Assembly (NCBI RefSeq): GCF_000564855.1 | Contig: NZ_AYXG01000029.1 | Span: 1-59,407, forward strand | Source of the DNA: Actinokineospora spheciospongiae | GTDB taxonomy: Bacteria > Actinomycetota > Actinomycetes > Mycobacteriales > Pseudonocardiaceae | Direction: 5' to 3' | Length of the DNA: 59,407 bases | In this document: positions 27,693-59,407 of the stretch, piece by piece | Numbering within the stretch: the stretch's first letter is position 1 | Layout of the letters: each line of letters begins with the position of its first letter | The notes under the pieces: generated by a model | The model's input: the letters and a program-made list of their open reading frames with translations, nothing else | Told to the model about the DNA's origin: nothing | The model's database searches: none | Made by a program: the position numbers and the translations under genes

Positions 27693-30600
27693 GTGGTTCT
27701 GCTGCGCCAAGGATCGGAACCGCTCGCCGCGCCCCTGTCGCCCGCCCAGCAGCGGCTGTGGTTCCTGCACGAGTTCCACCCCGGCGCCGAGTACAACACC
27801 TCGGTCGGTTTCCGGCTGCGCGGTCCCCTCGACCCCGGCGCGCTGCACGGCGCGCTGGACCGCCTGGTCGAGCGGCACGAGTCGCTGCGCACCACCTTCC
27901 ACACCGTCGATGGTCGCGGCGCGCAGGTGGTGGGTCCGCCGTTCCCGCTGCGGCCCGCGCCGACGCCCTGCGCCGAGGCCGATGTGGAGGCGGTGCTGCT
28001 GGAGGTCACCGGGGAGCCGTTCGACCTGCGCCACGGGCCTCCGGTGCGGGCCGCGCTGCCGGCGCTCGGCCCGACCGAACACCTGCTGGTCCTGTGCCTT
28101 CACCACATCGTGACCGACGGGTGGTCGATGGGCGTGCTCGCGGAGGAGTTGGGGGTGCTGTACTCCGCCGCCGTGCGCGGGGAGGGAGCGGAGCTGCCCG
28201 CCCTGCCGCTGCGCTACGTCGACTTCGCCCGCGCGCAGCGCAAGCAGCTCACCGGCGCGGTGCTCGACCGGCACCTGGCGTACTGGGAACGACAGCTCGA
28301 CGGCCTGAACGCCTTGGAGTTGCCCACCGATCGGCCGCACACCACCGCGCGCACCACCGGCGGCGCGCGGTTGACCCGGGCCGTGCCCGCCGACCTGGTG
28401 GCGCGACTGACCCGGGTGGGCCGCGAGCGGGGTGCCACGCTGTTCATGACCCTGGTCGCGGCGACGCAGGTGTTCCTGGGCAGGCGCAGCGGCCAGCGGG
28501 ACGTGGCGGTGGGCACCGCCACCTCCGGGCGCCACGGCACCGAGCTGGCGGGCCTGGTCGGGTTCTTCGTGAACACCGTGGTCGTCCGCTCCGACGTGGA
28601 CGGATCGCTGTCGTTCGCCGACCTGCTCGACCGGGTGCGCGGCACCGTCCTCGACGCCCTGGACCACGACGCGGTCCCGTTCGACCGGCTGGTGGAGCTG
28701 CTGCGACCCGAGCGCGACCCGGGCCGGTCGCCGCTGGCGCAGGTGATGGTGCTGCTGCGCAACACCCCGGGGGGAACCCCGCGGTTGGCCGGGCTGGAGG
28801 TCACCGAGTTCGCGCTGCCGCACCGGACGTCCGCCTTCGACCTGACCGTGGAGTACGTCCCCGTCGAGGACGGCCTGCGGCTGGAGCTGGTCTACAGCAC
28901 CGACCTGTTCGAGGCGGACACGGTGGCGCGGATGGCCGACCAGTTGCTGGTGCTGCTCGACGGGGTGGCCGCCGACCCGGCGGGCAAGGTGGCGCGACTG
29001 CCGCTGACCCCGCCCGCTGAGCAGCGCCTGCTGGCCGAGTGGGCCGAGGGCGAGCGCACCACCGACCACTGCGTGCACGAGCTGTTCGCCGCGCGGGCCG
29101 CCGCCCGCCCCGACGCGGTGGCCCTCACCTGCGACGGCGCGGCGCTGACCTACCGCGAGCTGGACACCGAGGCCAACCGCCTGGCGCACGGGCTCCTGGA
29201 GCGGGGTGTGCGCCCTGAGGACCGCGTCGGGCTGTGCCTGCCGCGCGGGGTCGACGTCGTCGTGGCGATGCTCGCCGTGCTCAAGGCGGGCGGGGTGTAC
29301 GTGCCGCTGGACCCCGACTACCCGCCCGTCCGGCTGGCGCTGATGGTCGCCGACTCCGACACCGGGCTGGTGCTCACCCACGCAGGCCTGCGCGACCGGC
29401 TCCCCGCCGCGACCCCCGTGGTGGCGCTGGACGACGGCGGCTGGGCGGGGCACCCCGGGCACGCGCCCCCGGTGCGGGTCCACCCGCGCGGCGGCGCCTA
29501 CGTCATGTTCACCTCCGGGTCCACCGGCAGGCCGAAGGGCGTGCTGGTGGAGCACCGCTCGATCGCCCGCCTCGCCGCCGGGGACCCGCTGCGGGTCGGG
29601 CCGCGCGACGTGGTGGCCCAGTACTCGACGACCGCGTTCGACGCCTCCACGTTCGAGATCTGGGTGCCCCTGCTCTGCGGCGCCCGGCTGGCGCTGTGCG
29701 TGCGCGGCCTGCTCTCGGCCGAGGAGCTGGGCCGGTTCCTCGCCGCCGAGTCGGTGACCACGCTGTGGCTGACCGCGGGCCTGTTCCACGAGGTGGCCGC
29801 CGCCGACCCGGGGGTGTTCGCGGGCCTGCGCTGGCTGGGCTGCGGCGGTGACGTGATCGCCCCCGAGCACTGCGCCGAGGTGCTGCGGCGGGCCCCGGAC
29901 CTGCGGCTGGTCGACGGGTACGGCCCCACCGAGGGCACCACCTTCGCCACCGCGCACGTGGTCGGGCCGGGTGAGGCGCCGGTGCCGATCGGGCGGCCGA
30001 TCGCGGGCACCCGCTGCCACGTGCTCGACCACACCCTGGAGCCGGTCCCCATCGGTGTCCCCGGTGAGCTGTACGTCGGCGGGACCGGCCTGGCGCGCGG
30101 GTACTGCGGACGCCCGGGGCTCACCGCGCAGCGGTTCGTGGCCGACCCGTTCCACCCCGGTGAACGGCTGTACCGCACCGGGGACGTGGTCCGCTGGACG
30201 CCCGCCGGGGTGCTGGAATTCCTCGGGCGGGCCGACGACCAGGTCAAGATCCGGGGCTTCCGGGTGGAGGTGGGCGAGGTCGAGGCCGCGCTGCGCGGGC
30301 ACCCGGCGGTTACCGAGGCGGTCGTGGCCGCCCGCGAGCACGTGCCCGGCCACAAGCGGCTCGTCGCCCACGTGGTGGCCCCCGGTGCCGATGGGGCGGA
30401 GCTGCGCGCGTTCCTGGCCGCGACCCTGCCCGCGCACCTGGTGCCCGCCGTGGTCGTGCCGCTCGACGCGCTGCCGCTGCTGCCCAACGGCAAGCTCGAC
30501 CGCGCCGCCCTGCCCTCGGCGCCCACCCGGCAGGCCCGGACCCACGTCCCGCCCGGCGGTCGCGACGAAGAGGTGTTGGCGCGGGTCTGGGCTGAAGTGC

Positions 30601-33600
30601 TCGGTGTGGAGCGCGTCAGCGCCGACGACAACTTCTTCGCCCTGGGCGGGGACTCCATCCTGAGCCTGCAAGTGGTGTCCCGGGCGCGGGAGCTGGGGTT
30701 GCGGATCACCCCGAAGGACGTGTTCCTGCGCCAGACCCTGGCCGGGGTCGCCGCGACCGCCGACACCGAGCCCGCCGTCACCGCCGAGCAGGGGCCGGTG
30801 ACCGGGCAGGCGCCGCTGACGCCGATCCAGCACTGGTTCTTCGCCACCGTCACCACCTCTCGCGAGCACTTCCTCCAGTGGATCGCGGTGGAGCTGCCCC
30901 CGGACGTGGACCGGGTGGCGCTGCGCGCGGCGGTGGAGGCGCTGCCCGTGCGGCACGACGCGTTGCGCACCCGATTCCGGCAGGTGCGGGGGCAGTGGGT
31001 GCAGGACGTGCCGCCACCGAGTGCGGAGGACGTCCTCGTTCCTGACCAGTCCACGGTGGAGGATTTCCTGCTGCTGGTGCGGACGGGGATGGATCTGGAC
31101 GCGGGCCACCTGTTCCGGGCCGGGGTCGTGGCCTCGGACCGGTTGGTGCTCGCCGCCCACCACCTGGTCGTCGACGGGGTGTCCTGGCGGGTGCTCTTGG
31201 CGGACCTGCGCACCGGCTACCAGCAGGCAGCGGCCGGTCGGGCGATCGAGCCACGACCCAAGACCACCTCCTTCCGCGACTGGGCGCGATTATTGGCCGA
31301 ACATGCGGGGAGCGGCGGGTTCGACCACCACCTGCCGTACTGGGCTCAGGCGATCGTGGACGTCCCGGTGGTGAAGGGCGAACCGGGGCACCCGGAGCGC
31401 GCCGTCACCGCGCACCTCCCGGCCGAGGACACCGCTGCCCTGCTGCGCGCGGCGGCCACCGCCTACCGCGCCAGGGTCAACGACGTGCTGGTGGCGGCGC
31501 TGGGCGTGGTGCTCGCCCGCTGGACCGGGCACGACCGCGTCCCGCTGGAACTGGAGGGCCACGGCCGGGAGGACGTCCTCGACGGGGTCGACCTCACCCG
31601 CACGGTCGGGTGGTTCACCACCCTGTTCCCCTTCACCGCGCTGTTCCCCTCCAATGCCGACGTGCGCGGCGCACCGGACTGGGGCGCGGTGCTCAAGTCG
31701 GCCAAGGAGGGGCTGCGCGACGCGCACGGGCACAGCCTCAGCCACGGCGCCCTGCGCTGGCTCACCGACCGCGAACCGGCCGAACACCGACCCGTGGTCA
31801 GGCTGAACTACCTGGGGCGCTTCGACTCCGCCCACGACGACCTGTTCCCCCCGACCCCCGAGGGCATCGGGCTCGACCGCGCCCACCCGACCACCGGCAC
31901 GGCCCAACTCGACGTCGTCGCGAGCGTGACCGCCGGGGGTGAGCTGGAGTTCGAGTGGACCCACTCCCCCGGCGCCCACACCGAGGCGACCGTGGCCAGG
32001 CTGGCCGAGGAGACGCTGACCGCCCTGCGCGAGATCACCGCGCACTGCGCCGAACCGGGCGTGGGCGGGCCGACCCCGTCGGACTTCCCGCTGGCGGGCC
32101 TGGACCAGGCCGAGCTGGACCGGGTCGTCGGCGACGACCGGTCGGTGGAGGACGTCTACCCGCTGACCCCCATGCAGAGCGGGATGCTGTTCCACGGCCT
32201 GTCGCTGCCCGGCCTGTACCTGGAGCAGGTCGCGTTCACCGTGACCGGCCTCGACGACCCGGCGGCGCTGGAACGGGCCTGGGCGCGCGTGGTCGAGGCC
32301 ACGCCCGTGCTGCGCACGTCGGTGGTGTGGGAGGGACTGCGCGAACCCCTCCAGGTGGTGCGGCGCGAGGTGGCGGTCCCGGTCGCGCACCACGACTGGC
32401 GCGGCATCCCGGAGGCGCAGCGGGAGGAACGGCTGCGGCGGCTGCTCGCCGACGACCGCGCCACCGGGATCGACCCCGGCGCGGCGGCGCTGCTGCGGCT
32501 GGTGTTCGTGCGCACCGGCGAGACCGAGGTCCGGGTCGTGTGGAGCTTCCACCACGTCCTGCTCGACGGGTGGAGCCTGTTCCAGGTGGTGTCGGACGTG
32601 CTGGCCGTGGTCGCGGGTGGCACGCCGCGACCGCGCCGCCCGTTCCGCGACCACGTGGCCTGGGCGCGGGCGCGCGACACCGACGCCGCCGAGCGGCACT
32701 GGCGGGGCGTGCTCGCCGGTTTCGCCGAACCCACCCCGCTGCCCTTCGACCGGCCGCCGGGCCGGGCGCACCGCTCGTGCTCGTCGTCGGCGCACGACCT
32801 CGTCCTGCCGGAGGGGGTCACCGCCGACGTGCGCGGCTTCGCCCGGCGCAACCGGCTGACGCTGAACACGGTCGTGCAGGGCGGGTGGGCGCTCCTGCTG
32901 GCCCGGCGCGGCGGCAGGCGCGACGTGTGCTTCGGGTCGGTGGTCTCCGGGCGCCCGGTCGGGTTGGCGGGCGCCGACTCGATCGTGGGGATGCTGGTCA
33001 ACACCGTGCCGGTGCGGGTCGAGGTCGACCCGGCCGACACGACCGACCTGCCGGGGTGGCTGGGGCGGTTGCAGGCCGCGCAGGCGGAGGCCCGCGGGTT
33101 CGAGCACCTGCCGCTGCCCCGGGTCCAGCGGTTGGGCGCGGTGCCCCCGGGGCGGAACCTGTTCGACAGCGTCGTGGTGTTCGAGAACTACCCGCTCGAC
33201 CACGAACCGGCCGGTGCGGGCGGGCCGCGACTGGGTGACGTCGTCGCCGTGGAGAACACCAACTACCCGCTGCACCTGGTCGCCCAGGGCGGTTCCCGGC
33301 CGGGCGAGCCGCTGGCGCTGCAACTGGGCTACGACCCGGAGCTGTTCGACGCCGCGACCGCCGAGGGGTTGTGCGCCGAACTGGCCGGGCTGCTGGCGGA
33401 CCTGACGCGGGGCGCGGTCCCGGCCGTGGACCTCCCCGCGACCGCCGCACCCGTGGTCGCGCCCCCGCCCGGGCCCCGGGAGTTCACCGCCCCGCGCGGT
33501 GCCGCCGAGCGGGCCGTGGCCGACATCTGGGCCGACGTCCTGGCGGTGCGGCGGGTCGGGGTGTGGGACGACTTCTTCGACCTCGGCGGGGATTCCCTGC

Positions 33601-33749
33601 TGGGGATGCGGGTCGCCGCCCGGGTGGGCGCGGCCTTCGGCGTGGCGCTGTCACCGCGCGCCCTGTTCGACAACCCCACGGTCGGCGCCCTGGCCGCCTT
33701 CGTCGAGCACTCCTCGGCGGCGGTCGACTCGCGCGACTACGAGCTGTGA
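27693..33749 (+). CDS. NRPS 2: C-A-PCP-E-C-PCP (second module lacks an adenylation domain)
   Basis: About 2018 aa. GTG 27693 is tentative, chosen because the C domain ([11 protein letters not shown]) begins about 15 residues later; no strong ribosome site is visible and TTG 27681 is possible. Motifs by approximate residue: C1 HHIVTDGWS (137), A1 [10 protein letters not shown] (608), PCP1 LGGDSIL (985), [11 protein letters not shown] (1158), C2 HHVLLDGWS (1620), PCP2 LGGDSLL (1967). A1 pocket residues read D-A-F-W-G-G-G-T-F, close to a valine-type code (DAFWIGGTF) except at position 299. C2 runs through a Pro/Ala-rich linker straight into PCP2, so that carrier must be loaded in trans. A rare TTA codon lies at 31290. 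It is followed closely by the KS hybrid gene. No thioesterase is present. Confidence 0.93.
31290..31292 (+). promoter_or_regulatory. In-frame TTA leucine codon in NRPS 2 (possible bldA control)
   Basis: TTA encodes a leucine in [11 protein letters not shown] within the E domain. TTA is very rare in GC-rich actinomycetes and, where it occurs in secondary-metabolism genes, ties translation to the bldA tRNA. It is the only in-frame TTA I found in the window by eye. Confidence 0.6.
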
Positions 33750-33763
33750 GACGGGAGAGCGGC

Positions 33764-36700
33764 GTGGCGGATCGGGACGGGCCGGGCGGGGACATCGCCG
33801 TGATCGGGGTGGCCGCGCTGCTGCCCGGGGCGAGCGGCCTGGACGAGCTGCACCACCTGCTGGCCGCGGGTGAGGACCGGGTGGCGCCGCCGACGCCGAC
33901 GCGGGTGCGCCACACCGGGGGCGAGCCGGGCACCGAGTACCTGCCCATGGCCTACCTCGACCGGATCGACCTGTTCGACCACCGGTTCTTCGGCATCCCG
34001 CTGCGCGAGGCGGAGGCGATGGACCCGCACCACCGGCTGCTCATGCAGTTGGCGCACGCGGCCATCGAGGACGCGTGCCTGCGCCCGAGCGGGCTCCAGG
34101 GGTCGCGGACCGCGGTGGTCCTCGGTCACGCCCGCTCCGACTACGACACCCTGTACGGGGAAGACGACCCGCTGCACACGCTGGGGTCGTTGCCCGCGGC
34201 GCTGGCGGCGCGGATCGCCTACCACTTCGACCTCACCGGCCCGGCGTTCACCGTCGACACCGCGTGCAGCAGCGCCCTGGCCGCCGTCGCCCAGGCGGTC
34301 ACGGAACTGCGCCGCGGTGCCGCCGACCTGGCACTGGCGGGCGGCATCAGCCTGCGCCCGGTGCTCATCCCCACCGAGGGGCACGTCCCGGCGCGCGGGG
34401 TGGAGACCACCGACGGGCGGTGCCGCCCCTTCGACGAACGCGCCACCGGCGCCGCGGCGGGCGAGGGCGGCGCGGTCGTGCTGCTGCGCAGGCTGGCCGA
34501 CGCGGTGGCCGCGGGCGACCCGGTGCACGCGGTGATCAAGGGCATCGCGGTCAACCACAACGGGCACCGGATGGCCAGCATGGGCGCGCCGAGCCGCAAG
34601 GCGCAGACCGAGGTGATCACCGCGGCCTGGCGCGACGCCGGGGTGGCGGCGGACTCGGTCGGCTACGTGGAGTGCCACGGCTCGGCGACCCCGCTCGGCG
34701 ACGTGATCGAGGTCGACGCCCTGCGCCAGGCCTTCGCCGACGCGGGCGTGCCCGCCCCCGGCTGCCCGATCGGGTCGATCAAGGGCAACCTCGGGCACCT
34801 CGACGGCGCCGCCGGGATGGCCGGGCTGCTCAAGGCGCTGCTGGCGGTGCGCCGCGGCGAGCTGTACCCGACCGCGCACTTCACCACCCCCAACCCGATG
34901 CTCGACCTGTCCGGCCCGGTGCACGTCAACCCCGCCCGCGCGCCGTGGGCGAAGGACGGGCCGCGCCGGGCGGGGGTGAGCGCCTTCGGCATGACCGGCA
35001 CCAACGTGCACGCCGTGCTGGAGCAGGCACCGCCGCGCCCCGGCGCCGCCGTTCCTGACCTGGGCGGCGAATTGGTCACTGTCTCGGCGAAGTCCGCCTC
35101 GGCGTTCGGCCGCTACTGCGACCGGCTCGCCGACTTCGCCGCCACCACCGACCACGACCTGCGGACCGTCGCGCACGCGCTGAACCGGGGCCGCGACGAC
35201 CACCCCTACCGCGGCGCGTTCACCGCCCGCACCACCCGGGAACTGGCCGAGGCCCTGCGCGCCGCAGTGCCGCCCCGGGAACCCGCGCCCGATGAGCGGC
35301 CGGTGGTGGTGCTGCTGGCCGGTGACGCGGTCGTGGAGGAGGAGACCTGGCGGGAGCTGTGCACGACGTTCCCGGCCCTGGCGGACACCCCGCTGCCAGA
35401 GGCCCCCGCCGCCCGGTTGGTGGCGACGGGCGTGGCGCTGCTCGCCCTGGCCCGGTCGCTGGGCGTTCGGCACGACCACCTGGTCGGGTCGGGGGCGGGG
35501 AACCTGGTGGTGAGGGTGGCGCGGGAAGAGATGACCCTCGACGCCGCACTGCGGGCGGCGGAGGGCATGGCGCTGAGCAGCGAGCTGGACCACGCGCGGC
35601 TGGCGGGGGTCGCCGAACGGTTCACCCGCGACGGCGCGGTGCTCGTCGACCTGGCCACCGACGGCGTGCTCGCCCGGGAACTGCGGCGGCTGCGGCCGGA
35701 GCTGCCCCGGGTGGAACTGTTCGCCGCACCCGGGCGCGGCAGCGTGCTGCGCCAGCTCGGCGCCCTGCACCGGCTCGGGGTCCGCCTCGACTGGGACGCC
35801 CACTACGCCGGGGCGGACATCCCCCGCGTCCCGGCGCCGACCTACCCGTTCGACCCGGTGCGCTGCTGGTGCCGACCGGTCGGGGCACCCGCGCCGCAGC
35901 CGGTGAGCAGGCCCGCGTCCGCGTCACCCACCCCGATGCCGGGTGCGCCGGAGGACCGCGTCATGGCGGTGTGGCGGCGGGTGCTGGGTGCCGACGACCT
36001 GGCGCCCGACTCGGACTACTTCGCCCTGGGCGGCACCTCCATCGCCGGGATCAGCGTGCTGCGCTCCCTGGAGGACGAGTTCGGCATCCAGCTCACCTTC
36101 GCCGACCTCTACGCCCACCGGACCGTGCGCGACCTCGCCGCCCGGGTGGCGCAGCTCCGGGCCGAGGGCGGGTCGGCAGGCGCCCACCAGGACATCCCGG
36201 TCCTGCCCCGGGGCGGCCCGCTGCCGGTGTCCTTCGGCCAGGAACAGCTCTGGTACCTCGACCGGCTGAACCCGGGCACCGCCCTCTACAACATCACCCA
36301 CGACCTGCGCCTGCGCGGACCGCTCGACCAGGCCGCCCTCACCGCGGCCGTGCGGGACCTGATCACCAGGCACGAGGTGCTGCGCACCCGGATCGCCGCC
36401 GACGACGACGGCGTGCCGCACGCCCTGGTGCGCGCGGAGGAACACCGCGTGGCGGTGCACGACCTGTCCGCGCTGCCCGAGGACGAACGGCACCGCGAAG
36501 CCCGGCGGCTGATCGACGAGGACGCGCTGCTGCCCTTCGACCTGGCCGAGGGGCCGCTCGTGCGCACCGCGCTGCTGCGGCTGGGCGACGACGACCACGT
36601 GCTGCTGTGGACCTACCACCACATCGTCTACGACGGCTGGTCACCCACGGCGTTCTTCCGCGACCTCAGCGAGTTCTACCGGGCGCGGCTGGCCGGGCGG

Positions 36701-39115
36701 GCACCCGAGCTGCCGGTGCTGGGCGCCCAGTACGCCGACTTCGCCGCCTGGCAGCGCCGCAGGCTCGCCGACGGGGTGCTGGCCGAGGGCCTGCGGTTCT
36801 GGCGCGGCGCCCTGGCGGGCCTGCGCGCCGACGAACTGCCGCTGGACCGGCCCCGACCCACCACCCGCGACTTCACCGGCGCCATGGTGGAGTTCGAGGT
36901 GACCGGGGAGCAGGCGGAGCGGGTCCGCGAGTTCAGCAGGCAGCAGGGGGTCACCAGCTTCGTGACCATGCTCGCGGTGGTCGACACCCTGCTGCACCGC
37001 TGGGCCGGGCACACCGACGTGGTGATCGGGGTGGCCACCTCCGGGCGGGTCAACCCCGCCACGCACGACCTCATCGGCTACTTCAACAACGTGCTGCCGT
37101 TCCGCACCAGCACCGCGGGCTCCCCGCCGTTCACCGAGCTGGTGCGCCGCTGCGCGCGCACGGTGGCCGACGTGCTCGACCACGAGGAGGTGCCGCTGGA
37201 GAAGGTCGTCGCCGACGTGCTCGGCCGCCGCGACCCCGGCAGGCACCCGCTGTTCGACGTGGCCTACACCTACCAGAACGTGCCGCAGGACACCGCTGAA
37301 CTGGGTGGGCTGGGCTGCTCCCGCTACCTCGACGGCGCCATCGTCGGGATCGCCCCCGGCACGGCCAAGTTCGACCTGACCGTGGGCGTGGTCGACCAGG
37401 GCGAGGGCCCGATGAGCGGTTACATCGAGTACGCCACCGCCCTGTTCGACCGCGCCACGGCCGAGCGGCTGGCCAAGTGGCTGCCCGAGATCGTCGCCGA
37501 GGTCGCCGCCGACCCCGACCGGCCGCCGCACCCGATCCCCACTCCGGCACCCGCTCCACAGTGGAGGGAACCCCAGCCCATGCCCCACTCCCCCAATGGC
37601 ACCTCCCGCGCCGGACAGGTCCTCACCGCCGTGGTCGCCGACCTGCTGGCCCTCGACGACGTCAAGCCGAGCGACAACTTCTTCGACCTCGGCGGCGACT
37701 CGGTCCTGGGCGTCCGGGTGGCCGCCCGAGCGGCCAAGGCGGGGGTGCACGTCACCCCGCAGCAACTCCTGCAGTGCCGCACCATCGACGAACTGGCCCT
37801 CGTCGCCGCCGTGGACGGCCACGAGCGGGAACCCGCCCAGGCCCCCGACCGGCACATCCCGCTGACACCGATCATGCACCACTTCCTGGAGCACGTACCC
37901 GACGGCAACGCGGACTTCGTGGAGGTGCAGGTGTTCGAGCTGACCTCCACCGCCGTCACCGCCGAACACGCCCGCGCCGCCGTCGAACACCTGCTGGCCC
38001 GGCACGAACCACTGCGCTACCGCTTCCGCGGCAACAGCCTCAGCCTGCACGCCGAGTGCGCCCCACCCGGCGACACCCCGTTCGACGTCTCGGTCCTGCC
38101 GCCGATGGACGAGCAGCGCGAACGGGAACGCATCGCCGCCGACTGCCGGGACCTGCGCACCGACCTGGACCTCAAGCGCGGCCCGGTGGTGCGTGCCCGC
38201 TACTACCAGCGCGGCCACGGCCGCAGCGCGCTGCTCGTCCTGCTGGTCCACCACTTCGTCTTCGACAACATGTCCACCGTCGTGCTCATGGACGACCTGG
38301 ACGCCGCCCTCACCGACCTGGTCGCCGGTCGCGCGTTGGCACCCCAACCACACGCCCCGGGCTGGCGGCGGTGGTCGGAACACCTGCGCGACATGTCCAC
38401 CTCCGACACCCTGGCCGCCGAACTGGACTACTGGACGGCCATCGCCCACGCGGGCGCCGACCTGGGCCTCCCACCGGGAGAAGGCGGGGGCGGCACGGCC
38501 CGGTACTTCCTCGACACCGTCCCGACCACGGGCAGCGCGTCCGAACGGGAGGTGGCGCTGTGCGCGGTGGCGCACGGGCTGGCCCAGTGGAGCGGGACGG
38601 CGGGCGCCTACCTGACCGTGGAGGGCGAGGCCACCCCCAGCGCCTACCGGCACGCGGGCCGGGGACCGGCGGTGGGCTGGTTCACGACCCTGCACCCGGT
38701 CGTCCTGCCCATCGAACCGGGCGCGGCAGTGCGGGACTGCCTGCCCGACGTGGTCGACCGGGTCCGCTCGGTGCCCAACGACGGCGTGGGCCACGGGATG
38801 CTGCGGCACCTGTCGCCGCACAACCCGGCGGTCGCCCGGTTCCGCGCCCTGCCCGAGCCGCAGGCCATCCTGCTGCACGCCCCCAGCGACATGGCCGCGT
38901 TCGACGCCGGGGTGCGGCTGATCAGGATGCGGTGGGACCTGGCGGTCAACCTCAAGCAGGCGGTCTCCACCTGGTTCCCGCTGATCGTCGCCGTGGCCGA
39001 GCGCGAATCCCGGCTGTGCGTGGAACTGACCAGCGTGGACCGCTTCAGCCAGGCCGAACTGGAAGCCATGGCCTCGCGGATCGGCGCCGCCTTCACCGCG
39101 CTGGCGGACGGGTGA
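33764..39115 (+). CDS. Hybrid PKS-NRPS: KS-pseudoAT-ACP-C-PCP-E-like, with no active AT and no A domain
   Basis: About 1783 aa. GTG 33764 has GGGAG 6 bases upstream; GTG 33746, overlapping the NRPS 2 stop, is an alternative. The KS keeps its catalytic Cys (VDTACSSA, about 167), His (VECHGSATPLGD, 303) and His (KGNLGHLDGAAG, 344). The next region keeps an AT-like start (RELCTTFPAL) and the post-AT linker (PTYPFDPVRCW) but is only about 180 aa, and GHSxGE has become GSGAGN (about 576), so the nucleophile is missing. Then follow an ACP (LGGTSI, 758), C (HHIVYDGWS, 953), PCP (LGGDSV, 1311) and a variant E/C domain (HHFVFDNMS, 1497; GHGMLRHL). Extender unit and amino acid must both come from other proteins. 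It sits directly after NRPS 2. Confidence 0.9.
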   Translation: MADRDGPGGDIAVIGVAALLPGASGLDELHHLLAAGEDRVAPPTPTRVRHTGGEPGTEYLPMAYLDRIDLFDHRFFGIPLREAEAMDPHHRLLMQLAHAAIEDACLRPSGLQGSRTAVVLGHARSDYDTLYGEDDPLHTLGSLPAALAARIAYHFDLTGPAFTVDTACSSALAAVAQAVTELRRGAADLALAGGISLRPVLIPTEGHVPARGVETTDGRCRPFDERATGAAAGEGGAVVLLRRLADAVAAGDPVHAVIKGIAVNHNGHRMASMGAPSRKAQTEVITAAWRDAGVAADSVGYVECHGSATPLGDVIEVDALRQAFADAGVPAPGCPIGSIKGNLGHLDGAAGMAGLLKALLAVRRGELYPTAHFTTPNPMLDLSGPVHVNPARAPWAKDGPRRAGVSAFGMTGTNVHAVLEQAPPRPGAAVPDLGGELVTVSAKSASAFGRYCDRLADFAATTDHDLRTVAHALNRGRDDHPYRGAFTARTTRELAEALRAAVPPREPAPDERPVVVLLAGDAVVEEETWRELCTTFPALADTPLPEAPAARLVATGVALLALARSLGVRHDHLVGSGAGNLVVRVAREEMTLDAALRAAEGMALSSELDHARLAGVAERFTRDGAVLVDLATDGVLARELRRLRPELPRVELFAAPGRGSVLRQLGALHRLGVRLDWDAHYAGADIPRVPAPTYPFDPVRCWCRPVGAPAPQPVSRPASASPTPMPGAPEDRVMAVWRRVLGADDLAPDSDYFALGGTSIAGISVLRSLEDEFGIQLTFADLYAHRTVRDLAARVAQLRAEGGSAGAHQDIPVLPRGGPLPVSFGQEQLWYLDRLNPGTALYNITHDLRLRGPLDQAALTAAVRDLITRHEVLRTRIAADDDGVPHALVRAEEHRVAVHDLSALPEDERHREARRLIDEDALLPFDLAEGPLVRTALLRLGDDDHVLLWTYHHIVYDGWSPTAFFRDLSEFYRARLAGRAPELPVLGAQYADFAAWQRRRLADGVLAEGLRFWRGALAGLRADELPLDRPRPTTRDFTGAMVEFEVTGEQAERVREFSRQQGVTSFVTMLAVVDTLLHRWAGHTDVVIGVATSGRVNPATHDLIGYFNNVLPFRTSTAGSPPFTELVRRCARTVADVLDHEEVPLEKVVADVLGRRDPGRHPLFDVAYTYQNVPQDTAELGGLGCSRYLDGAIVGIAPGTAKFDLTVGVVDQGEGPMSGYIEYATALFDRATAERLAKWLPEIVAEVAADPDRPPHPIPTPAPAPQWREPQPMPHSPNGTSRAGQVLTAVVADLLALDDVKPSDNFFDLGGDSVLGVRVAARAAKAGVHVTPQQLLQCRTIDELALVAAVDGHEREPAQAPDRHIPLTPIMHHFLEHVPDGNADFVEVQVFELTSTAVTAEHARAAVEHLLARHEPLRYRFRGNSLSLHAECAPPGDTPFDVSVLPPMDEQRERERIAADCRDLRTDLDLKRGPVVRARYYQRGHGRSALLVLLVHHFVFDNMSTVVLMDDLDAALTDLVAGRALAPQPHAPGWRRWSEHLRDMSTSDTLAAELDYWTAIAHAGADLGLPPGEGGGGTARYFLDTVPTTGSASEREVALCAVAHGLAQWSGTAGAYLTVEGEATPSAYRHAGRGPAVGWFTTLHPVVLPIEPGAAVRDCLPDVVDRVRSVPNDGVGHGMLRHLSPHNPAVARFRALPEPQAILLHAPSDMAAFDAGVRLIRMRWDLAVNLKQAVSTWFPLIVAVAERESRLCVELTSVDRFSQAELEAMASRIGAAFTALADG

Positions 39116-40107
39116 TCGCCCTGGCGGCAGCGGGCTGGCACCTGCCCGACCCGGTCCCGGTCGCCGACCTGCCCGAACTGGCGCACCTGTCCCCCGCCGA
39201 ACGCGCCACCTGTGCGGCCCTGGGCATCGACAGCGTCGCGGTTGACGATTCCCTGGGCCCGACCGACCTGGCCGCCCTAGCCGCCCGCCGCGCCCTCGTG
39301 GCAGCGGACCGCGAACCCGACGACGTGGATGTTCTGCTCGTCATCGAGTCCCGCGCTCCGGACACCCTGGTCAGCTCCGAGGCCACCCGCCTGCAAACCG
39401 CCCTGGGTGCCCGCCGTGCGATGGCCTTCTCGGTGGGCGGCCTTGGCTGCGCGTCACTGACCCCCGCCCTGCTCACCGCCGAGGGCCTGCTGCGCGCCAA
39501 CCCGGACCTGCGGACGATCCTGGTGGCCCACGGCAGCAAACCGGCCACCCCCGGCCGCTACCGCCACCCGGTCACGCTGAACGGCGACAGCGGCGGAGCG
39601 CTGGTGATCGCTAGGGAAGGCCCGGTCCTCGTGCGCGACATGCTGCTGGAAACCAACGGCGACTACGCGGACCTGTTCCGGGTCGACTACCGCGACCGGT
39701 CGTTCGAGCGGTGGCGGGAGGAGTGCGCCGACCTGCCGACGTACTCGTTCAAGCTGGCGGTCGAAACCCGCAACCGCCTGCGCTCCCTCACCGAGAGACT
39801 GCTGTACCGCAACGGCCTCCGCCCGGCTGATGTGGCCTGCCACATCAGCCAGAACCTGTCGGCCACATCCCTGCGCAACCACGAGGAAATCCTGGGCGCC
39901 CCCCTGACGAAGTCCTGCCAGGACAACCTGTCCCGCTACGGCCACCTCGGCCCGAACGACGTCTTCCTCAACCTCTACAGCGCCTTGGACCGGGGTGAAC
40001 TCCACCCGGGGGATCGCGCGGTACTGCTCAACGTCAGTCCGGTCGCCGCGTGGAGCGCGCTACTGGTGGAAATCGGCCCCCAGGAAGACGCGCACCACCT
40101 GCTGTGA
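39112..40107 (+). CDS. KASIII-like (FabH-fold) ketosynthase or acyltransferase
   Basis: A 331-aa thiolase-fold protein. GTG 39112 overlaps the hybrid gene's stop (GTGA), so the two are coupled. The nucleophile is in AFSVGGLGCASLTPAL (Cys about 111). The histidine is in ACHISQNLSATSL (family HQAN), and the usual YGN(T/S) asparagine is replaced in LSRYGHLGPNDVF by histidine. A Cys-His-His site departs from standard FabH (Cys-His-Asn). It recalls KASIII relatives that transfer acyl groups rather than condense and decarboxylate. Likely roles are acyl loading or transfer between carriers of the adjacent line; this is inference. It is the last gene of the plus-strand operon. Confidence 0.82.
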   Translation: MIALAAAGWHLPDPVPVADLPELAHLSPAERATCAALGIDSVAVDDSLGPTDLAALAARRALVAADREPDDVDVLLVIESRAPDTLVSSEATRLQTALGARRAMAFSVGGLGCASLTPALLTAEGLLRANPDLRTILVAHGSKPATPGRYRHPVTLNGDSGGALVIAREGPVLVRDMLLETNGDYADLFRVDYRDRSFERWREECADLPTYSFKLAVETRNRLRSLTERLLYRNGLRPADVACHISQNLSATSLRNHEEILGAPLTKSCQDNLSRYGHLGPNDVFLNLYSALDRGELHPGDRAVLLNVSPVAAWSALLVEIGPQEDAHHLL

Positions 40108-40114
40108 CGCCTGT

Positions 40115-40139
40115 CCGTCGAGTTCCCACACCTCGACGG
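40115..40139 (+). terminator. Hairpin after the KASIII-like gene
   Basis: CCGTCGAG pairs perfectly with CTCGACGG over a 9-base loop, 7 bases past the stop at 40107. It has no U-tract. It probably ends the NRPS 2 - hybrid - KASIII transcript. Confidence 0.55.
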
Positions 40140-40201
40140 CCCACTGATCACCATGTGCCACACTGGCAGCAGCAGGCTCAGTGGCAAATCGGGGGTACAC
40201 C

Positions 40202-40654
40202 ATGGCACGGCTTCTCGCCCATCTGGACGACAGCGTGGAGGTCGACCACAACCACTTCCTGATGCAGGAAGTACCGACACTGCGCACGATGAGCGTCGAC
40301 GACATGCCCGGCGACGACGAACTCGTCGCGGGCAGCGACGGTGGGCTCTACTTCCACAGCGCCGCGAACGATCACGAGGCGGATGTGCGACTCGAACTCT
40401 GGGACGCGGAGCCGGACCCGGTGGCGGCGCCGTGGACCCTCGGGGCCACGGTGTCGACCGACCTGCGAGACGCGGTCCGGTTCAACTCGATCTTCATGGT
40501 CTTCTCCGGGCGAGAGCTGGTCCTGCCGGTGTCGGGCCCGTACATGGCCCGCGTCTCGACCCGGGGTCGTGACGCTGCTGCGGAGTTGGAGGAGGCCACC
40601 TTCGCCAAGGGCGTGGAGAAGTGGCTCGTGCAGCTGTGGTCGCGCCCGGCCTGA
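40202..40654 (+). CDS. Uncharacterised 150-aa cytoplasmic protein
   Basis: I do not recognise this protein. ATG 40202 is preceded by GGGGG about 7 bases upstream; an in-frame GTG at 40181 lacks one. The sequence (MARLLAHLDDSVEVDHNHF) is acidic, has no signal peptide or membrane helix, and looks like a single compact beta-rich domain (GGLYFHSAANDHEADVRLEL, FNSIFMVFSGRELVLPVSGP) with a helical end (AAELEEATFAKGVEKWLVQL). It lies alone between a terminator and a convergent small membrane-protein gene. Coding character looks normal for the region. The function is unknown. Confidence 0.65.
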   Translation: MARLLAHLDDSVEVDHNHFLMQEVPTLRTMSVDDMPGDDELVAGSDGGLYFHSAANDHEADVRLELWDAEPDPVAAPWTLGATVSTDLRDAVRFNSIFMVFSGRELVLPVSGPYMARVSTRGRDAAAELEEATFAKGVEKWLVQLWSRPA

Positions 40655-40664
40655 TCCGAGTCGG

Positions 40665-40931
40665 TCAGGACGTCCGGGCGTGCAACCAAGCGCGCACGGC
40701 CAACCCCAGGGCGAGGACGCCCAGCACCGCCATCACGATCACGGCGGTGGTGGGTACCACGCCCATCTCCGCAAGCGCGCAGAACCCGGCGGACGGGAAC
40801 GGGGAGCAGTAACGCATCCGGTCCAGTTCTTCCGGTCCAGGCTTGCTGATCCGGTAGGTGAACCCTGCCAGCACGATGAGCAGCACACCTGCGGTGATCA
40901 GAATGACGACCGTGCGCCTCGTGGACATCAT
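40665..40931 (-). CDS. Small two-helix membrane protein
   Basis: An 88-aa protein with two membrane helices: VVILITAGVLLIVLAGF (residues 8-24) and AVIVMAVLGVLALGLAV (about 63-79). They flank a roughly 38-residue loop containing two cysteines (RYCSPFPSAGFCALAE), which could form a disulfide outside the cell. Two adjacent ATG codons start it (40931 and 40928). AGGGGGA immediately upstream is better spaced for the second. It converges on the uncharacterised gene with 10 bp between stops and lies downstream of the XRE regulator gene. The function is unknown. Confidence 0.6.
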   Translation of the reverse strand: MMSTRRTVVILITAGVLLIVLAGFTYRISKPGPEELDRMRYCSPFPSAGFCALAEMGVVPTTAVIVMAVLGVLALGLAVRAWLHARTS

Positions 40932-41003
40932 TCCCCCTGGTCCGATGAGCAGCGCGAGGAATCAGCTTAGATGATCGGCGCCTGCTGTGACGGGGTTGTT
41001 TCC

Positions 41004-42179: not shown

Positions 42180-42326
42180 CCCCGACTCCCTTCCTGCTGG
42201 ACCTCAGCGAAGGTAACAGCCGGTTCGAGCACCCGCGCCCGCCGCGCCCGCACCCCACAAACTCCCCGCGTCGATGGGCTCGTGGGCTTGGAGGTCACAG
42301 CGATCCCGGTTGCGCCGGCGATCCTG
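42180..42326. other. Intergenic region upstream of the XRE gene
   Basis: It presumably contains the promoter of the XRE regulator gene. No copy of the 27578 inverted repeat and no iron box was seen. Confidence 0.4.
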
Positions 42327-42356
42327 GCTCCGGGGCGCCCGTGGGCACCCCGGAGC
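42327..42356 (-). terminator. Strong hairpin after the SdrD-like gene
   Basis: GCTCCGGGG-C-GCCC / GGGC-A-CCCCGGAGC forms a 13-bp stem with one mismatch and a 2-base loop. It starts 7 bases beyond the stop at 42363. It insulates the downstream XRE gene from read-through. Confidence 0.75.
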
Positions 42357-43597: not shown

Positions 43598-44835
43598 TCA
43601 GTGGTGGGCGGGTTCCTTCTGGGCTTCGAGGAGGTCCTTCTTGTCGGGGAAGGCGCGCAGCGCGGGGCTGATCAGGGCCAGGATGGTCAGCACCGCGATC
43701 CCGGCCGTGCACAGCAGGATCACCTGGGTGCCGCCCGCCAGCCCGGCCAGCAGCCCGCCCACCGCAGGACCCGCCGCCGCGGAGGCGCCGCCGAGGACGG
43801 CCATGACGCTGCTGAAGCGGCCGCGCATCTCGTCGGGGGTGAGCAGGAGTTGGTAGGTGCTGATGGTGACGTTGGCCGTGGGGGCGAGGAAGGCGATGCC
43901 CGCGAGCAGCAGGCCCATCAGGTAGCCGTTGTGGATGAACACGGCCACCGGGGTGAGGAGGGTGAGGGCGACGAAAATGCCGACGATGGACAGGTACGGG
44001 GTGAGCAGGCGGTTCAGGGTGGGGGCGGCGAGGGCGCCGAGGAGGCCGCCGATGCCGAACATGGCCGCCATGACGCCGATCTCGGCGGGTGAGAGGCCGC
44101 GTTGGTGGGCCAGGACGATGATGACGATGTAGAACGCGGTGAAGAAGAAGTTCACCCCGATCAGGCAGGCGGCCGTGGCGCGGATGAAGCGCTGGCCCCA
44201 CACCCAGCGCAGACCGTGCCCGATCTCGGGCAGCAGTCTGCTCAGGGAGGCCCGTGCCCGTTCCTGCGCGGGGACGCGCAGGAACAGCAGGGCGATGAAC
44301 GAGAACACGTGCAGGACCATGTCCACCGCGAACGGGACGACCCTGGCCAGCGTGAACAGGGCTCCGCCGAGGGCGGTGCCGGACAGTTGGCCCAGGTAGC
44401 CGCGGGCGGCGTTGCCCGCGATCGCGCTGTGCACCTGTTCGGCGGGCACGACCCGGGGCAGGGTGGCGTGCTCGGCGGGTTCGAAGAAGGCCCGGCACAG
44501 GCCCATCAGCGCCGCCGCGGCGATGATGTGCGCCAGGCCGAGCACGTCGAACCACAGCGCGGCGGCGATGCTGGCCGCGGCGAGGATCTGGCCTGCTTCG
44601 CACAGGAGCATGACTCGTTTGCGGTCCCAGCGGTCGACCAGGGCGCCCGCGGGCAGGCCCGCGACGAGTTGGGCCGCCGCGCTGGCGCCGACCGCCAGGC
44701 CCGAGGCCGCCGGGGAGCCGGTGACCACGAGCACCAGCAGCGGCAGGGCGATGGTGACGGCGTTGAAGCCGACCTCTGAGGCGACCTGCGCGCCCCAGAG
44801 GATGCCGTAGTTGCGGTTCTTGCGGAGGGGGGTGC

Positions 44836-44839
<4 letters not shown>
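43598..44839 (-). CDS. MFS exporter of the EntS / MFS_3 type
   Basis: A 413-aa, roughly 12-helix membrane transporter. It starts [20 protein letters not shown] and has the MFS motif [15 protein letters not shown] (about residue 68) and a second-half equivalent near [15 protein letters not shown]. The overall pattern ([42 protein letters not shown]-type helices) is that of the enterobactin exporter EntS and drug-efflux relatives. ATG 44839 overlaps the NRPS 3 stop (ATGA), so it is coupled to the synthetase and probably exports its product or confers self-resistance. The longer open frame upstream is a shadow. Confidence 0.9.
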
Positions 44840-57159
<12,320 letters not shown>

Positions 57160-57177
57160 GGCGTCGTCTTCCCTGGG

Positions 57178-59407
57178 TCAGTTGCGCTCGTCGCCCGCGG
57201 CCGCGGACTCGAGTTCGGACAGGATGGATTCCTCGACCGCGCGGGCCAGGGCCGCGACGGTGTGGCAGCCGATGACCTCGCGCAGCGAGATGTCGACGTC
57301 GAAGGTCTCCCGCACCTTGGTGGTGACGTGCAGGCTGAGGATCGAGTCGCCGCCGAGGGCGAAGAACTCGTCGTCGACCCCGACCTCCGCCACCGCCAGC
57401 ACCTCGGCCCAGATCTCGGCGATCAGCGTCTCGGTGATCGTCCGCGGCGCCTGGTGCTGCGCCACCGACACCTGCGGCTCGTCCGCGAGGACAGCCACCC
57501 CGTTGCCGGTGGCGGGCCGCATCGGCTCGCCGAGGGAGTCGAGCAGGGTCCGCAGCGACTGGTACGGGTCGGTCACGGCGGCGTCGAGCAGCACACCCAG
57601 GCGCCTGCCCATCTCCTCGACGGTGGCCGCGTCGAACACGGCCGGGTCGTAGGTGAAGGCGAAGGTGAGCCGGCTCCCCGGGTAGACGATCACGCTCATC
57701 GGGTAGTTGGTGGTCTCCACCGCGCGCACGTCGCCCAGCCGCAGCCCGTGCTCGGCGGCGGCCTGGTCGTCGATCGGGTAGTTCTCGAACACCACCAGGC
57801 TGTCGAACAGGTTGGCCCGCCCGGTGACGCCGCTGAGCCCGCGCAGCTGGTTGAGCGGCACGTAGCCGAACCGCCGCGACTCCACCTGCGCCAGTTGCAG
57901 GCGTTGCAGCCACGGCACCAGCCGCGCCCTCGGGTCGGCCTCGGCGAGCACCGGCATGGTGTTGATGCAGATGCCGATGATCTCGTCCACCCCCGGCAGC
58001 TCGTCGGGCCTGCCGGACACGGTGCTGCCGAAGCACACCTGCTGCTGACCGGCGCAGTCGGCGAGCAGCAGCGCCCACGCACCCTGCACGACGGCGTTGC
58101 CGGTCAGCCGGTTGGCCCGGCCCAGCTCGGCGACCCGCTCGCTGGTGCGCTCGGAGAGCCGGACGGTGATCCGCTCGGTGGAGCGCTGGCCGTGGCTGGT
58201 CGTGGCGACCCGGTCGACCGGCAGCGGGGTGGGCTCGGTCAGCCCGGACAGCAGGCCGCTCCAGTGCTCCCGCGCGGCGTCGCGGTCCTGGCGCCCGAGC
58301 CAGGCCACGTAGTCGCGGAACGGCCGCCGGGGCACGGGGTCGCCCGCCCCCGGGTGCCCGGTGAGCCGGGCGTGCTCGGCGAAGACGTCGGTGAGCACCC
58401 GGAACACGCTCCACCCGTCGAGCAGCAGGTGGTGGAAGGTCCACACCACCCGCACCTCGTCGGCGGAGAGCCGGGCGATCCGCAGCCGCATCAGCGGGGG
58501 CGCGGTGAAGTCCAGCTCGTCGCCGCGGTCCTGGGCCAGCAGCTCGCCCAGCCGCTGCTCGCGCCACGGCTCCGGCTGCGCCGCCCAGTCCTCGTGCGCC
58601 ACCGGCACCCGCCCGGAGCGGTGTACCACCTGCACGGGCTCGGGGAGGTTCTCCCAGGCCACGGCGGTGCGCAGCACGGGGGTGCGGTCCACGACCCGCT
58701 GCCACGCCTCGGCGAGCAGGGCGGGGTCGCCCACCCCGGCCAGCGTGCAGGTGACCTGCTCCAGGTAGAGCCCCTCGCCCTCCTGGGCGAGGCTGTGGAA
58801 CAGCATGCCGCTCTGCATCGGGGTCAGCGGGTAGACGTCCTCGACCGCCCGGCCGGTGCCGACGATCCGGTCGACGGCGGCCTGGTCGAGGCGGGCCAGC
58901 GGGAAGTCCGACGGCGTGCAGCCGCCCGCCCCCGGCTCGGCGCAGTGCGCCACGAGCGAGCGCAGCCGGGCGACCATGCCCTCGGCCAGCGCGCGCACCG
59001 TCTCCTCCTCGTGCAGCTCCGCGGAGTGGAACCAGGTGAACTCCAGCCCGGAGCGGTCGGCGCGGCCGACGACCTCCAACTGGTGCGCCCTGGTCGCGCC
59101 CTGGTCCTCGTCGAGGCCCAGCGGCCCGGCGGGGGCGCTGTAGAGCCCGTCCACCACGCCCGCGGTGTCGAACTGGCCCAGGTAGTTGAACGAGACCTGC
59201 GCCTGACCGGTCCCGGTGGCCCGGTCGCCGAGGTAGCGCAGGGCACCGTGGCCGACGCCGCGACCGGGCACCGCCCGCACCTGCTCCTTGACCGACTTGA
59301 GCAGCGCGCCGGGCTCCTGGCTGCCGGACAGGTCCAGCGCGACCGGGAACAGCGTGGTGAACCAGCCGACCGTGCGGGACAGGTCGACGTCGTCGAACAG
59401 TTCCTCG
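57178..59407 (-). CDS. NRPS 4, C-terminal part: ...E-C-PCP (terminal module lacks an adenylation domain)
   Basis: The 5' end lies beyond the window; 742 residues are visible. It begins in the second half of an E domain ([42 protein letters not shown]). A full C domain follows ([26 protein letters not shown] near 58430; NYPMSVIVYPG), then directly a PCP ([15 protein letters not shown], Ser near 57340). Only about 35 residues separate the C domain from the PCP, so there is no A domain. The tail ESILSELESAAAGDERN is acidic and may dock to the basic N-terminus of NRPS 3, encoded 18 bp later. The same E-C-PCP ending is found in NRPS 2. Confidence 0.93.
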   Translation of the reverse strand, partial: EELFDDVDLSRTVGWFTTLFPVALDLSGSQEPGALLKSVKEQVRAVPGRGVGHGALRYLGDRATGTGQAQVSFNYLGQFDTAGVVDGLYSAPAGPLGLDEDQGATRAHQLEVVGRADRSGLEFTWFHSAELHEEETVRALAEGMVARLRSLVAHCAEPGAGGCTPSDFPLARLDQAAVDRIVGTGRAVEDVYPLTPMQSGMLFHSLAQEGEGLYLEQVTCTLAGVGDPALLAEAWQRVVDRTPVLRTAVAWENLPEPVQVVHRSGRVPVAHEDWAAQPEPWREQRLGELLAQDRGDELDFTAPPLMRLRIARLSADEVRVVWTFHHLLLDGWSVFRVLTDVFAEHARLTGHPGAGDPVPRRPFRDYVAWLGRQDRDAAREHWSGLLSGLTEPTPLPVDRVATTSHGQRSTERITVRLSERTSERVAELGRANRLTGNAVVQGAWALLLADCAGQQQVCFGSTVSGRPDELPGVDEIIGICINTMPVLAEADPRARLVPWLQRLQLAQVESRRFGYVPLNQLRGLSGVTGRANLFDSLVVFENYPIDDQAAAEHGLRLGDVRAVETTNYPMSVIVYPGSRLTFAFTYDPAVFDAATVEEMGRRLGVLLDAAVTDPYQSLRTLLDSLGEPMRPATGNGVAVLADEPQVSVAQHQAPRTITETLIAEIWAEVLAVAEVGVDDEFFALGGDSILSLHVTTKVRETFDVDISLREVIGCHTVAALARAVEESILSELESAAAGDERN

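What the first reader, a model, noticed from the sequence alone, without database searches (positions are those of the whole stretch)
27693..59407. Assembly line with three A-less C-PCP modules and a dead AT: system-wide loading in trans
NRPS 2 (second module), the KS hybrid (second half) and NRPS 4 (last module) each have a C domain running straight into a PCP with no adenylation domain. The only PKS module has no usable acyltransferase. Four carriers on three proteins lack an in-cis loading enzyme while all catalytic C and KS motifs remain intact. Single trans-loaded modules are known (for example in yersiniabactin and kutzneride pathways), but four in one line is striking and suggests shared trans-acting adenylation and acyl-loading proteins, off-window or hidden among the cassette enzymes.
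Basis: partly seen in the sequence, partly recalled or inferred. Interest (0 to 1): 0.85.

Follow-up and report, generated by a model that had tools for sequence, protein, structure and literature searches.

The report
Peptide assembly lines missing loading domains
Two neighbouring bacterial peptide-building enzyme systems really do lack several built-in loading parts; the same gaps occur in related species, so they look like an evolved design in which other enzymes do the loading, although this particular strain's copy of one system may be running down.

Summary
The anatomy is confirmed: three C domains run straight into a PCP (linkers 8, 4, 20 aa; A-bearing modules: median 500), and the only KS module has a dead AT, with C, KS and carrier residues intact. 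It is not one line. The minus-strand NRPSs continue on contig C32 as a separate system with a PBP-type thioesterase. The plus-strand pair belongs to a family mapped at 19 loci (Actinokineospora, Saccharothrix, Solihabitans, Streptomyces and others). Of 17 loci judged, five keep A domains in both A-less positions, two lack one, ten (this strain included) lack both. The AT is dead in 19 of 19, and each locus has a KASIII-like enzyme with the Cys/His/Asp triad of acyltransferases ChlB3 and CerJ; 14 of 19 have an FkbH/dehydrogenase/carrier cassette expected to make hydroxymalonyl-ACP. Likely mechanism: KASIII moves that unit onto the module ACP, and a resident A domain charges the A-less PCPs (capreomycin precedent). 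No stand-alone NRPS A gene was found beside the lines. This strain's plus-strand line lacks the usual starter A-PCP, FkbH and 3-hydroxyacyl dehydrogenase, so it may be decaying. New variant of known kinds.

The parts
27693..33749 (+). NRPS P2: C-A-PCP-E-C-PCP; module 3 lacks an A domain; the N-terminal A1-PCP1 of relatives is missing here
32157..33680 (+). A-less module 3 of P2 (C then PCP, 8-aa linker)
33764..39115 (+). Hybrid P3: KS-AT(dead)-ACP-C-PCP-divergent E
35063..35932 (+). dead AT remnant with its post-AT linker, GSGAG instead of GHSxG
36221..37783 (+). A-less module 5 of P3 (C then PCP, 4-aa linker)
39112..40104 (+). KASIII-like enzyme, GTG start overlaps the TGA of P3, Cys113/His278/Asp283 as in ChlB3/CerJ
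27204..27479 (-). free-standing acyl carrier protein (LGVVNSL motif, GTG start), divergent from P2
26102..27250 (-). acyl-CoA dehydrogenase, next to the free ACP
57178..59407 (-). C-terminal part of the minus-strand NRPS, (E)-C-PCP with an A-less module, 20-aa linker; its N-terminal part A-PCP-C-A-PCP-E is inferred to be C32:2-5833
44836..57159 (-). NRPS P4: C-A-PCP-E-C-A-PCP-C-A-PCP-E, all modules with A
43601..44848 (-). MFS transporter downstream of P4

Best explanation
Two lines lie back to back. (1) The plus-strand P2-P3-KASIII line belongs to a conserved actinobacterial NRPS-PKS family whose fuller members read A1-PCP-C-A2-PCP-E-C-A3-PCP / KS-AT(dead)-ACP-C-A4-PCP-E / KASIII. A3, then A4, were lost (order inferred from their distribution) while C and PCP stayed intact. 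The in-cis AT is dead at every locus mapped. The extender is most likely hydroxymalonyl, made on a free ACP by FkbH, a 3-hydroxyacyl-CoA dehydrogenase and an acyl-CoA dehydrogenase, and the KASIII-like enzyme most likely carries it from the free ACP to the module ACP, doing the AT's job. The A-less PCPs are most likely charged by an A domain of the same line working on more than one carrier, A2 being the best candidate for module 3. (2) The minus-strand line (C32 plus 57178-59407, then P4) is a separate synthetase, probably released by a PBP-type thioesterase; its A-less module 3 groups with that of P2. Shown: anatomy, conservation, motif states, gene neighbourhoods. Inferred: substrates, who loads what, direction of transfer, order of losses, the C32-C29 join. 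In this strain line 1 lacks its starter A1-PCP1, and FkbH and the 3-hydroxyacyl dehydrogenase are not beside it, so it either borrows them or is decaying.
For: Same A-less junctions in other genera; A3 and A4 both present in 5 of 17 judged loci, A3 lost and A4 kept in 2, both lost in 10. 13 A-less module-3 C domains, both of the window's among them, lie on one side of a branch (82/78; 83% of 200 bootstrap trees). No GxSxG in the AT of 19 of 19 core loci. Full FkbH/HCDH/ACAD/ACP cassette in 14 of 19. KASIII with Cys/His/Asp in 19 of 19; 16 of these loci were found with the AT region and 3 with the KASIII itself. Fold hits of its model: NatS, ChlB3, DpsC, then FabH and CerJ entries, one CerJ with malonate on the Cys. 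A second KASIII-with-cassette type sits beside KS modules with no AT match (L113, L117), whereas 8 of 9 cassettes without KASIII and with a KS in span have an AT with GxSxG. A2 has a W278-x-GGT[F/M] code in 12 of 12 A3-less lines with an A2 in view, 0 of 4 A3-bearing lines; these A2 form one clade with the last A of P4 (0.978). No stand-alone NRPS A beside the lines. PBP-type enzyme: best PDB hit 6ksu, 1.6e-70 (SurE, recalled name), then Ulm16. Precedent: CmnA-A1 loads A-less CmnI in trans (PMC12400406).
Against: No loading was measured. G045 has lost A2 as well as A3, so A2 cannot be the universal loader. Core loci are related to each other, so the KASIII/dead-AT link rests on about two independent lineages, and L111 in this very genome (contig C20) has a dead AT and a cassette but no KASIII in span. 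By PDB sequence search ChlB3 (1e-12) practically ties with a FabH (1.2e-12), so the acyltransferase reading rests on the triad. KASIII could instead release the product, as AfcL does (PMC12186527). The single-branch grouping of A-less C domains is only moderately supported. In the window strain the line lacks A1-PCP1 and adjacent FkbH and HCDH; in A. pegani P2 is visibly decayed; A. enzanensis has an intact core but no cassette in the 80 kb read.
Confidence: 0.45

Rival explanations
1. A stand-alone A or A-PCP enzyme encoded elsewhere in the genome charges the A-less PCPs. Odds overlap with the other rivals, which concern different steps.
For: Known for other lines (PMC7539972 abstract; PMC8949500 section 4.1). 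The genome has 108 AMP-binding matches on many contigs. G045, without A2, would need some other loader.
Against: No such gene on C29 or C32, nor any other A domain in the 100-kb spans around the G172, G224 and G143 cores, although 14 of 19 loci carry the extender cassette with them.
Confidence: 0.25
2. In this strain the plus-strand line is a decaying remnant and its A-less carriers are not loaded at all; only the minus-strand line works.
For: A1-PCP1 is absent here, and in A. pegani it survives only in degraded form without the carrier Ser motif, where P2 has also lost most of E and C3; no FkbH or HCDH beside the window line.
Against: P2, P3 and KASIII are open and motif-complete from C2 on; dN/dS window against A. 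pegani is 0.17-0.43 for P3 domains and KASIII, similar to the minus-strand line (0.26-0.43), and 0.19-0.50 for P2, P3 and KASIII domains against A. enzanensis.
Confidence: 0.3
3. The KASIII-like enzyme releases the finished chain by transfer to an amine or alcohol, and the ACP is loaded by a housekeeping AT (FabD type).
For: No TE domain was matched in P2 or P3; AfcL, a KASIII-like enzyme with the same triad, releases a peptide (PMC12186527 passages). The genome holds AT matches in short frames, for example 364 and 425 aa.
Against: It does not explain why KASIII goes with absence of a working AT in a second cluster type whose KS protein has its own C-terminal reductase-like region (L113, L117, region judged by eye), nor the dedicated cassette.
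Confidence: 0.25
4. FkbH loads glycerate directly onto the A-less PCPs, as FkbH domains replace A domains in vioprolide-type modules.
For: Precedent in PMC8949500 (passages); FkbH lies beside 14 of 19 core loci.
Against: The FkbH cassette is equally present in lines that keep A3 and A4 (G109, G142, G060, L026), so it does not track A loss; the two dehydrogenases point to hydroxymalonyl.
Confidence: 0.05
5. Assembly deletions removed the A domains.
For: The window is a whole contig of a 262-contig draft and its right end lies in a sequence repeated elsewhere on the contig.
Against: The same junctions occur in independent assemblies, among them the single-contig genomes G172, G267, G224 and G239.
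Confidence: 0.02

Closest known systems
Capreomycin/viomycin NRPS with A-less module CmnI/VioI loaded by CmnA-A1 (PMC12400406, first of three parts read)
   Same: Module without A whose carrier is loaded in trans by the A domain of another module
   Different: There one A-less module is described; here two per plus-strand line plus a dead-AT PKS module, and specificities are unknown
WS9326A trans A domains (PMC7539972, abstract and outline seen)
   Same: Modules depend on A domains acting in trans
   Different: There two trans A domains lie downstream of the modular NRPS genes; none found beside the lines here
Zwittermicin hydroxymalonyl-ACP pathway and ZmaA-AT (PMC4207774, passages seen)
   Same: NRPS-PKS hybrid; extender made on a free ACP, last step an FAD-dependent oxidation
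   Different: ZmaA-AT keeps GYSFG and does the ACP-to-ACP transfer itself; here the AT has no active Ser and a KASIII-like enzyme is encoded with it
ChlB3/CerJ KASIII-like acyltransferases (PMC9573744, passages seen)
   Same: Fold and Cys/His/Asp triad with the same five-residue His-to-Asp spacing as ChlB3; ChlB3 moves an acyl group between carriers, CerJ moves malonyl units
   Different: About 23% identity; in the passages seen none acts as the AT of a modular PKS
SurE/Ulm16 PBP-type thioesterase lines
   Same: Minus-strand line ends in an E domain and has such an enzyme beside it
   Different: Its third module lacks an A domain

Membership tests
NRPS line with an A domain acting in trans on an A-less module (capreomycin type) | module with intact C and PCP residues and no A domain | tested here: met
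NRPS line with an A domain acting in trans on an A-less module (capreomycin type) | an A domain of another module aminoacylates the A-less PCP | not testable with these tools
   needs protein MS
NRPS line loaded by a stand-alone trans A enzyme | free A or A-PCP gene in the cluster | tested here: not met
   an unlinked gene is not excluded
PKS module using hydroxymalonyl-ACP | FkbH, 3-hydroxyacyl-CoA dehydrogenase, acyl-CoA dehydrogenase and free ACP beside the PKS (composition recalled) | tested here: inconclusive
   met in 14 of 19 core loci; the window has only the acyl-CoA dehydrogenase and the ACP; a full cassette lies on contig C20
PKS module using hydroxymalonyl-ACP | in-cis AT that accepts the ACP-bound extender | tested here: not met
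   no GxSxG in 19 of 19
KASIII-like acyltransferase (ChlB3/CerJ) | KASIII fold with a Cys/His/Asp triad | tested here: met
   19 of 19; fold; triad as described in PMC9573744
KASIII-like acyltransferase (ChlB3/CerJ) | acyl transfer activity without Claisen condensation | not testable with these tools
   enzyme assay needed
SurE-type (PBP-type TE) cyclopeptide synthetase, minus-strand line | PBP-type TE gene in the cluster and a terminal E domain without TE | tested here: met
   the C29-C32 join is inferred from a 32-bp overlap
Canonical trans-AT PKS | stand-alone malonyl AT in the cluster | tested here: not met
   none of the 42 AT matches of this genome lies on C29 or C32

The most novel reading that the evidence does not exclude
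A ChlB3/CerJ-type KASIII acyltransferase has taken over the acyltransferase role of a modular PKS, feeding hydroxymalonyl from a free ACP to a module whose own AT died, in a family of lines that also shed A domains one after another and let a resident A domain charge several carriers.
Probability: 0.35. Interest if true: 0.7.

Novelty: new variant of a known kind. Interest (0 to 1): 0.5.

Why it matters
The family is a natural series (all A domains, one lost, two lost) in which loss of a loading domain can be compared with what happens to the remaining A domains. It makes the question of how an NRPS tolerates A loss directly testable with related proteins, and it suggests a new kind of trans-acting acyltransferase for unusual extender units, which would be useful for engineering.

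Tried and rejected
Assembly artefact: rejected (same junctions in independent and single-contig genomes). FkbH loading of the A-less PCPs: disfavoured because FkbH does not track A loss. A tetronate-type role of FkbH plus KASIII (recalled, no call) was set aside because the cassette includes both dehydrogenases; not tested. A class-level search (394 genomes drawn from a larger group) found no relative of the AT-ACP region at E <= 1e-25 besides the window, although two Streptomyces relatives were found through the KASIII. The search with the C32 A domain was unspecific: 183 of 297 genomes at E <= 1e-100; only the A. pegani locus among them was mapped for a minus-strand line, so relatives of that line elsewhere are not excluded. 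Search for A1-PCP1 in this genome and in A. pegani gave only general A-domain similarity (at most 52% identity). Paper searches (open-access library only) listed nothing that I recognised as this family; one search returned no paper. A-domain residue codes use GrsA numbering recalled from memory; amino-acid assignments are leads only. The C, E, A, PCP and KS models were built from this window's own sequences, so weak or very different domains could be missed. The first AT model contained two wrong-frame rows and was rebuilt; the motif test there looked only for G[H/Y]SxG and was repeated for any GxSxG on the 19 core loci. In one search the A4 gap in P3 came out as two long gaps (216 and 150 columns) and smaller ones, and for P2 the aligner misplaced the A3 gap, so these alignments show loss but not exact end points. 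Two AT-region relatives (G141, G089) were not mapped; both have a KASIII match a few kb away. Of about 30 core-type KASIII matches and the further matches of about 39-47% identity, only those in the 19 core loci, L113 and L117 were mapped. Two of 28 non-core FkbH loci were not fetched; L126 has a weak KASIII-like match (43 bits) beside a weak FkbH and was not counted.

Full report
WHAT IS IN THE WINDOW. The window is contig C29 of a 7.5-Mb, 262-contig genome. It is in the same genus as G119 and G201, whose contigs match Actinokineospora pegani and A. enzanensis records by length; G143 matches Saccharothrix yanglingensis in the same way. The window holds three NRPS systems. (a) 265-11292 minus (P1, C-A-PCP-E-C-A-PCP-E-C) lies beside isochorismatase, chorismate-binding, SDR, AMP-binding ligase, FecCD, SIP and periplasmic binding genes: by its neighbours a catecholate siderophore cluster, not part of the finding. 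(b) Plus strand: P2 27693-33749 (C-A-PCP-E-C-PCP), P3 33764-39115 (KS-AT-ACP-C-PCP-E) and a KASIII-like gene 39112-40104 whose GTG start overlaps the P3 stop. (c) Minus strand: 57178-59407 (E-C-PCP) and P4 44836-57159 (C-A-PCP-E-C-A-PCP-C-A-PCP-E). The right contig end shares an exact 32-bp end with C32; the 32-mer occurs three times in the genome, the third copy internal to C29, so the join of C32 to C29 is inferred. It gives A-PCP-C-A-PCP-E-C-PCP. Upstream on C32 are a PF00144 protein whose best PDB hits are 6ksu (1.6e-70; titled alpha/beta hydrolase, SurE by recall) and PBP cyclase Ulm16 (1e-64), and an MbtH-like frame found by motif.

Three C-PCP modules with linkers of 8, 4 and 20 aa; across the loci mapped, A-less linkers are -3 to 24 aa (24 modules), A-bearing 430 to 522 aa (36 modules). 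All 24 A-less C domains keep HHxxxDG and all 24 following PCPs keep GGDS. The AT region has no GxSxG in 19 of 19 core loci; at the aligned place it reads GSGAG here and GSGxG, GAGAG, GSAGG, GFGAG or SSGLS elsewhere. Even the hydroxymalonyl-specific ZmaA-AT keeps GYSFG (PMC4207774, passages).

NOT ONE LINE BUT TWO. Domain maps of the window and 18 other core loci (16 of the 19 found with the AT region, three with the KASIII) show the fuller form A1-PCP-C-A2-PCP-E-C-A3-PCP / KS-AT-ACP-C-A4-PCP-E / KASIII. Of 17 loci in which both positions could be judged, A3 and A4 are both present in 5 (G109, G142, G060, G068, L026), A3 is lost and A4 kept in 2 (L024, G045), and both are lost in 10 (window, G119, G201, G172, G267, G224, G143, G159, G239, G290; in G119 C3 itself is largely deleted). 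G022 and L027 were left out because their upstream NRPS differs or P3 runs off the locus. G068 lacks the E of module 2; G045 lacks A2 and has an extra C-A-PCP. P3 is 61, 56 and 53% identical to three A4-bearing relatives outside the gaps. A minus-strand line of this layout was mapped only in the window and G119. Its C-PCP groups with the A-less module-3 C domains of the plus-strand family: 13 A-less rows on one side of a branch, support 82/78, 83% of 200 bootstrap trees. One loss followed by duplication is allowed and moderately favoured, not proven.

WHO LOADS THE ACP. Fourteen of 19 core loci carry FkbH, a 3-hydroxyacyl-CoA dehydrogenase, an acyl-CoA dehydrogenase and a free ACP in the span read (the FkbH of G172 was identified by TIGR01686). 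G068 has only the 3-hydroxyacyl dehydrogenase, L024 none in its 10-kb flanks, G119 and G201 none in 120 and 80 kb; the window has only the acyl-CoA dehydrogenase and the ACP. Zwittermicin makes hydroxymalonyl on a free ACP with a final FAD oxidation; that FkbH-type and 3-hydroxyacyl dehydrogenase enzymes do the earlier steps is recalled. Normally an AT then transfers the unit; here the AT is dead. The KASIII, directly after P3 in 18 of 19 loci (a few genes away in L027), has Cys/His/Asp in 19 of 19, the triad reported for ChlB3 and CerJ (PMC9573744, passages); condensing KASIII enzymes have Cys/His/Asn (recalled). By PDB sequence search ChlB3 (1e-12) and a Vibrio FabH (1.2e-12) practically tie (species of the FabH); the predicted model (mean pLDDT 82, seven sequences) matches NatS first, then ChlB3 and DpsC, with CerJ and FabH entries following. 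As a contrast I looked at 26 of 28 other FkbH loci in the same genomes. Thirteen have FkbH and both dehydrogenases. Two of them (L113, L117) also have a KASIII with the same Cys, His and Asp by eye, and there the KS module has no AT match, only a post-AT-like YPF..RYW stretch. Eleven have no KASIII match: eight have an AT with GxSxG (L119, L120, L125, L128, L129, L130, L131, L133; L119 and L120 come from close relatives), two have no KS in span (L118, L122), and one, L111 on contig C20 of this very genome, has a dead AT. So the link is strong but has one exception, and the core loci are not independent of each other.

WHO LOADS THE A-LESS PCPS. C29 and C32 hold eight NRPS A domains and one separate ligase, no free NRPS-type A domain. 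The 100-kb spans of G172, G224 and G143 hold no A domain besides A1 and A2 at the thresholds used; G267 and G239 hold others at a distance (a low-scoring 847-aa ORF; a separate NRPS), as do G201 and G119 (low-scoring matches). The A2 domains of A3-less lines share a W278-x-GGT[F/M] code in 12 of 12 with an A2 in view (10 plus-strand, 2 minus-strand lines) against 0 of 4 A3-bearing lines, and form one clade together with the last A of P4 (0.978): an A2 exchange coincides with A3 loss. G045, which lost A2 too, is the counterexample; the A2 of L024 and L026 is outside the loci held. The capreomycin case (CmnA-A1 loading CmnI, PMC12400406, first of three parts read) shows that such in-line trans loading occurs, there in a Saccharothrix. 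I rate in-line loading above a distant A enzyme, without proof.

STATE OF THE LINE IN THIS STRAIN. P2 begins at C2: A1-PCP1 is gone, with no significant tblastn match in 23-28.8 kb and no close copy elsewhere in the genome (at most 52% identity). A. pegani keeps a degraded A1-PCP1 and has lost most of E2 and C3. FkbH exists elsewhere in the window genome, with a full cassette on C20, so cross-supply is possible. dN/dS (Nei-Gojobori) against A. pegani is 0.17-0.43 for P3 domains and KASIII, 0.43 and 0.47 for P2 C2 and A2, but 1.27, 0.74 and 0.83 for P2 E2, C3 (74 aa aligned) and PCP3, where the A. pegani copy is broken; the minus-strand line gives 0.26-0.43; against A. enzanensis P2, P3 and KASIII give 0.19-0.50. 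So P3 and KASIII look maintained, and P2 is doubtful.

VERDICT. It is a new variant built from known kinds.

Noticed in passing
window 265-11292 (-): Siderophore-type NRPS P1 ends in a C domain with no following A or PCP; a free amine acceptor or a split module is possible.
   Followed up: partly
window 1-265: Two similar gene starts in tandem at the left contig end, as if the gene downstream of P1 had a truncated duplicate.
   Followed up: no
L111 (G000:C20:92001-106000): The same genome has a second cluster with a full FkbH/HCDH/ACAD/ACP cassette and a KS module whose AT is also dead, but with no KASIII match in span; it and the window's KASIII could complement each other.
   Followed up: partly
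L113 (G201:C1) and L117 (G045:C16): KS modules without an AT match, followed by ACP and a reductase-like region, beside an FkbH cassette and KASIII: a second, different family with the same combination.
   Followed up: partly
L030-L031 (A. pegani P2 homologue, G119:C107): P2 decayed in frame: A1 remnant, PCP1 without its Ser motif, E2 and C3 mostly deleted, while P3 and KASIII remain intact.
   Followed up: partly
L001:7448-7906 (+): MbtH-like frame (motif search only) beside the PBP-type thioesterase gene on C32.
   Followed up: no
window 24223-25521 (-): ORF that matches isocitrate/isopropylmalate dehydrogenase models mainly at its C-terminal part; it lies between an EF-hand protein and a leucine carboxyl methyltransferase family protein, both of which also lie beside the core in A. 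pegani.
   Followed up: no
window 37847-39115: The terminal E domain of P3 is divergent (HHFVFDN and EGEATP here, other variants in relatives) and sits at the end of a line without a TE; its role, epimerase or release, is open.
   Followed up: partly
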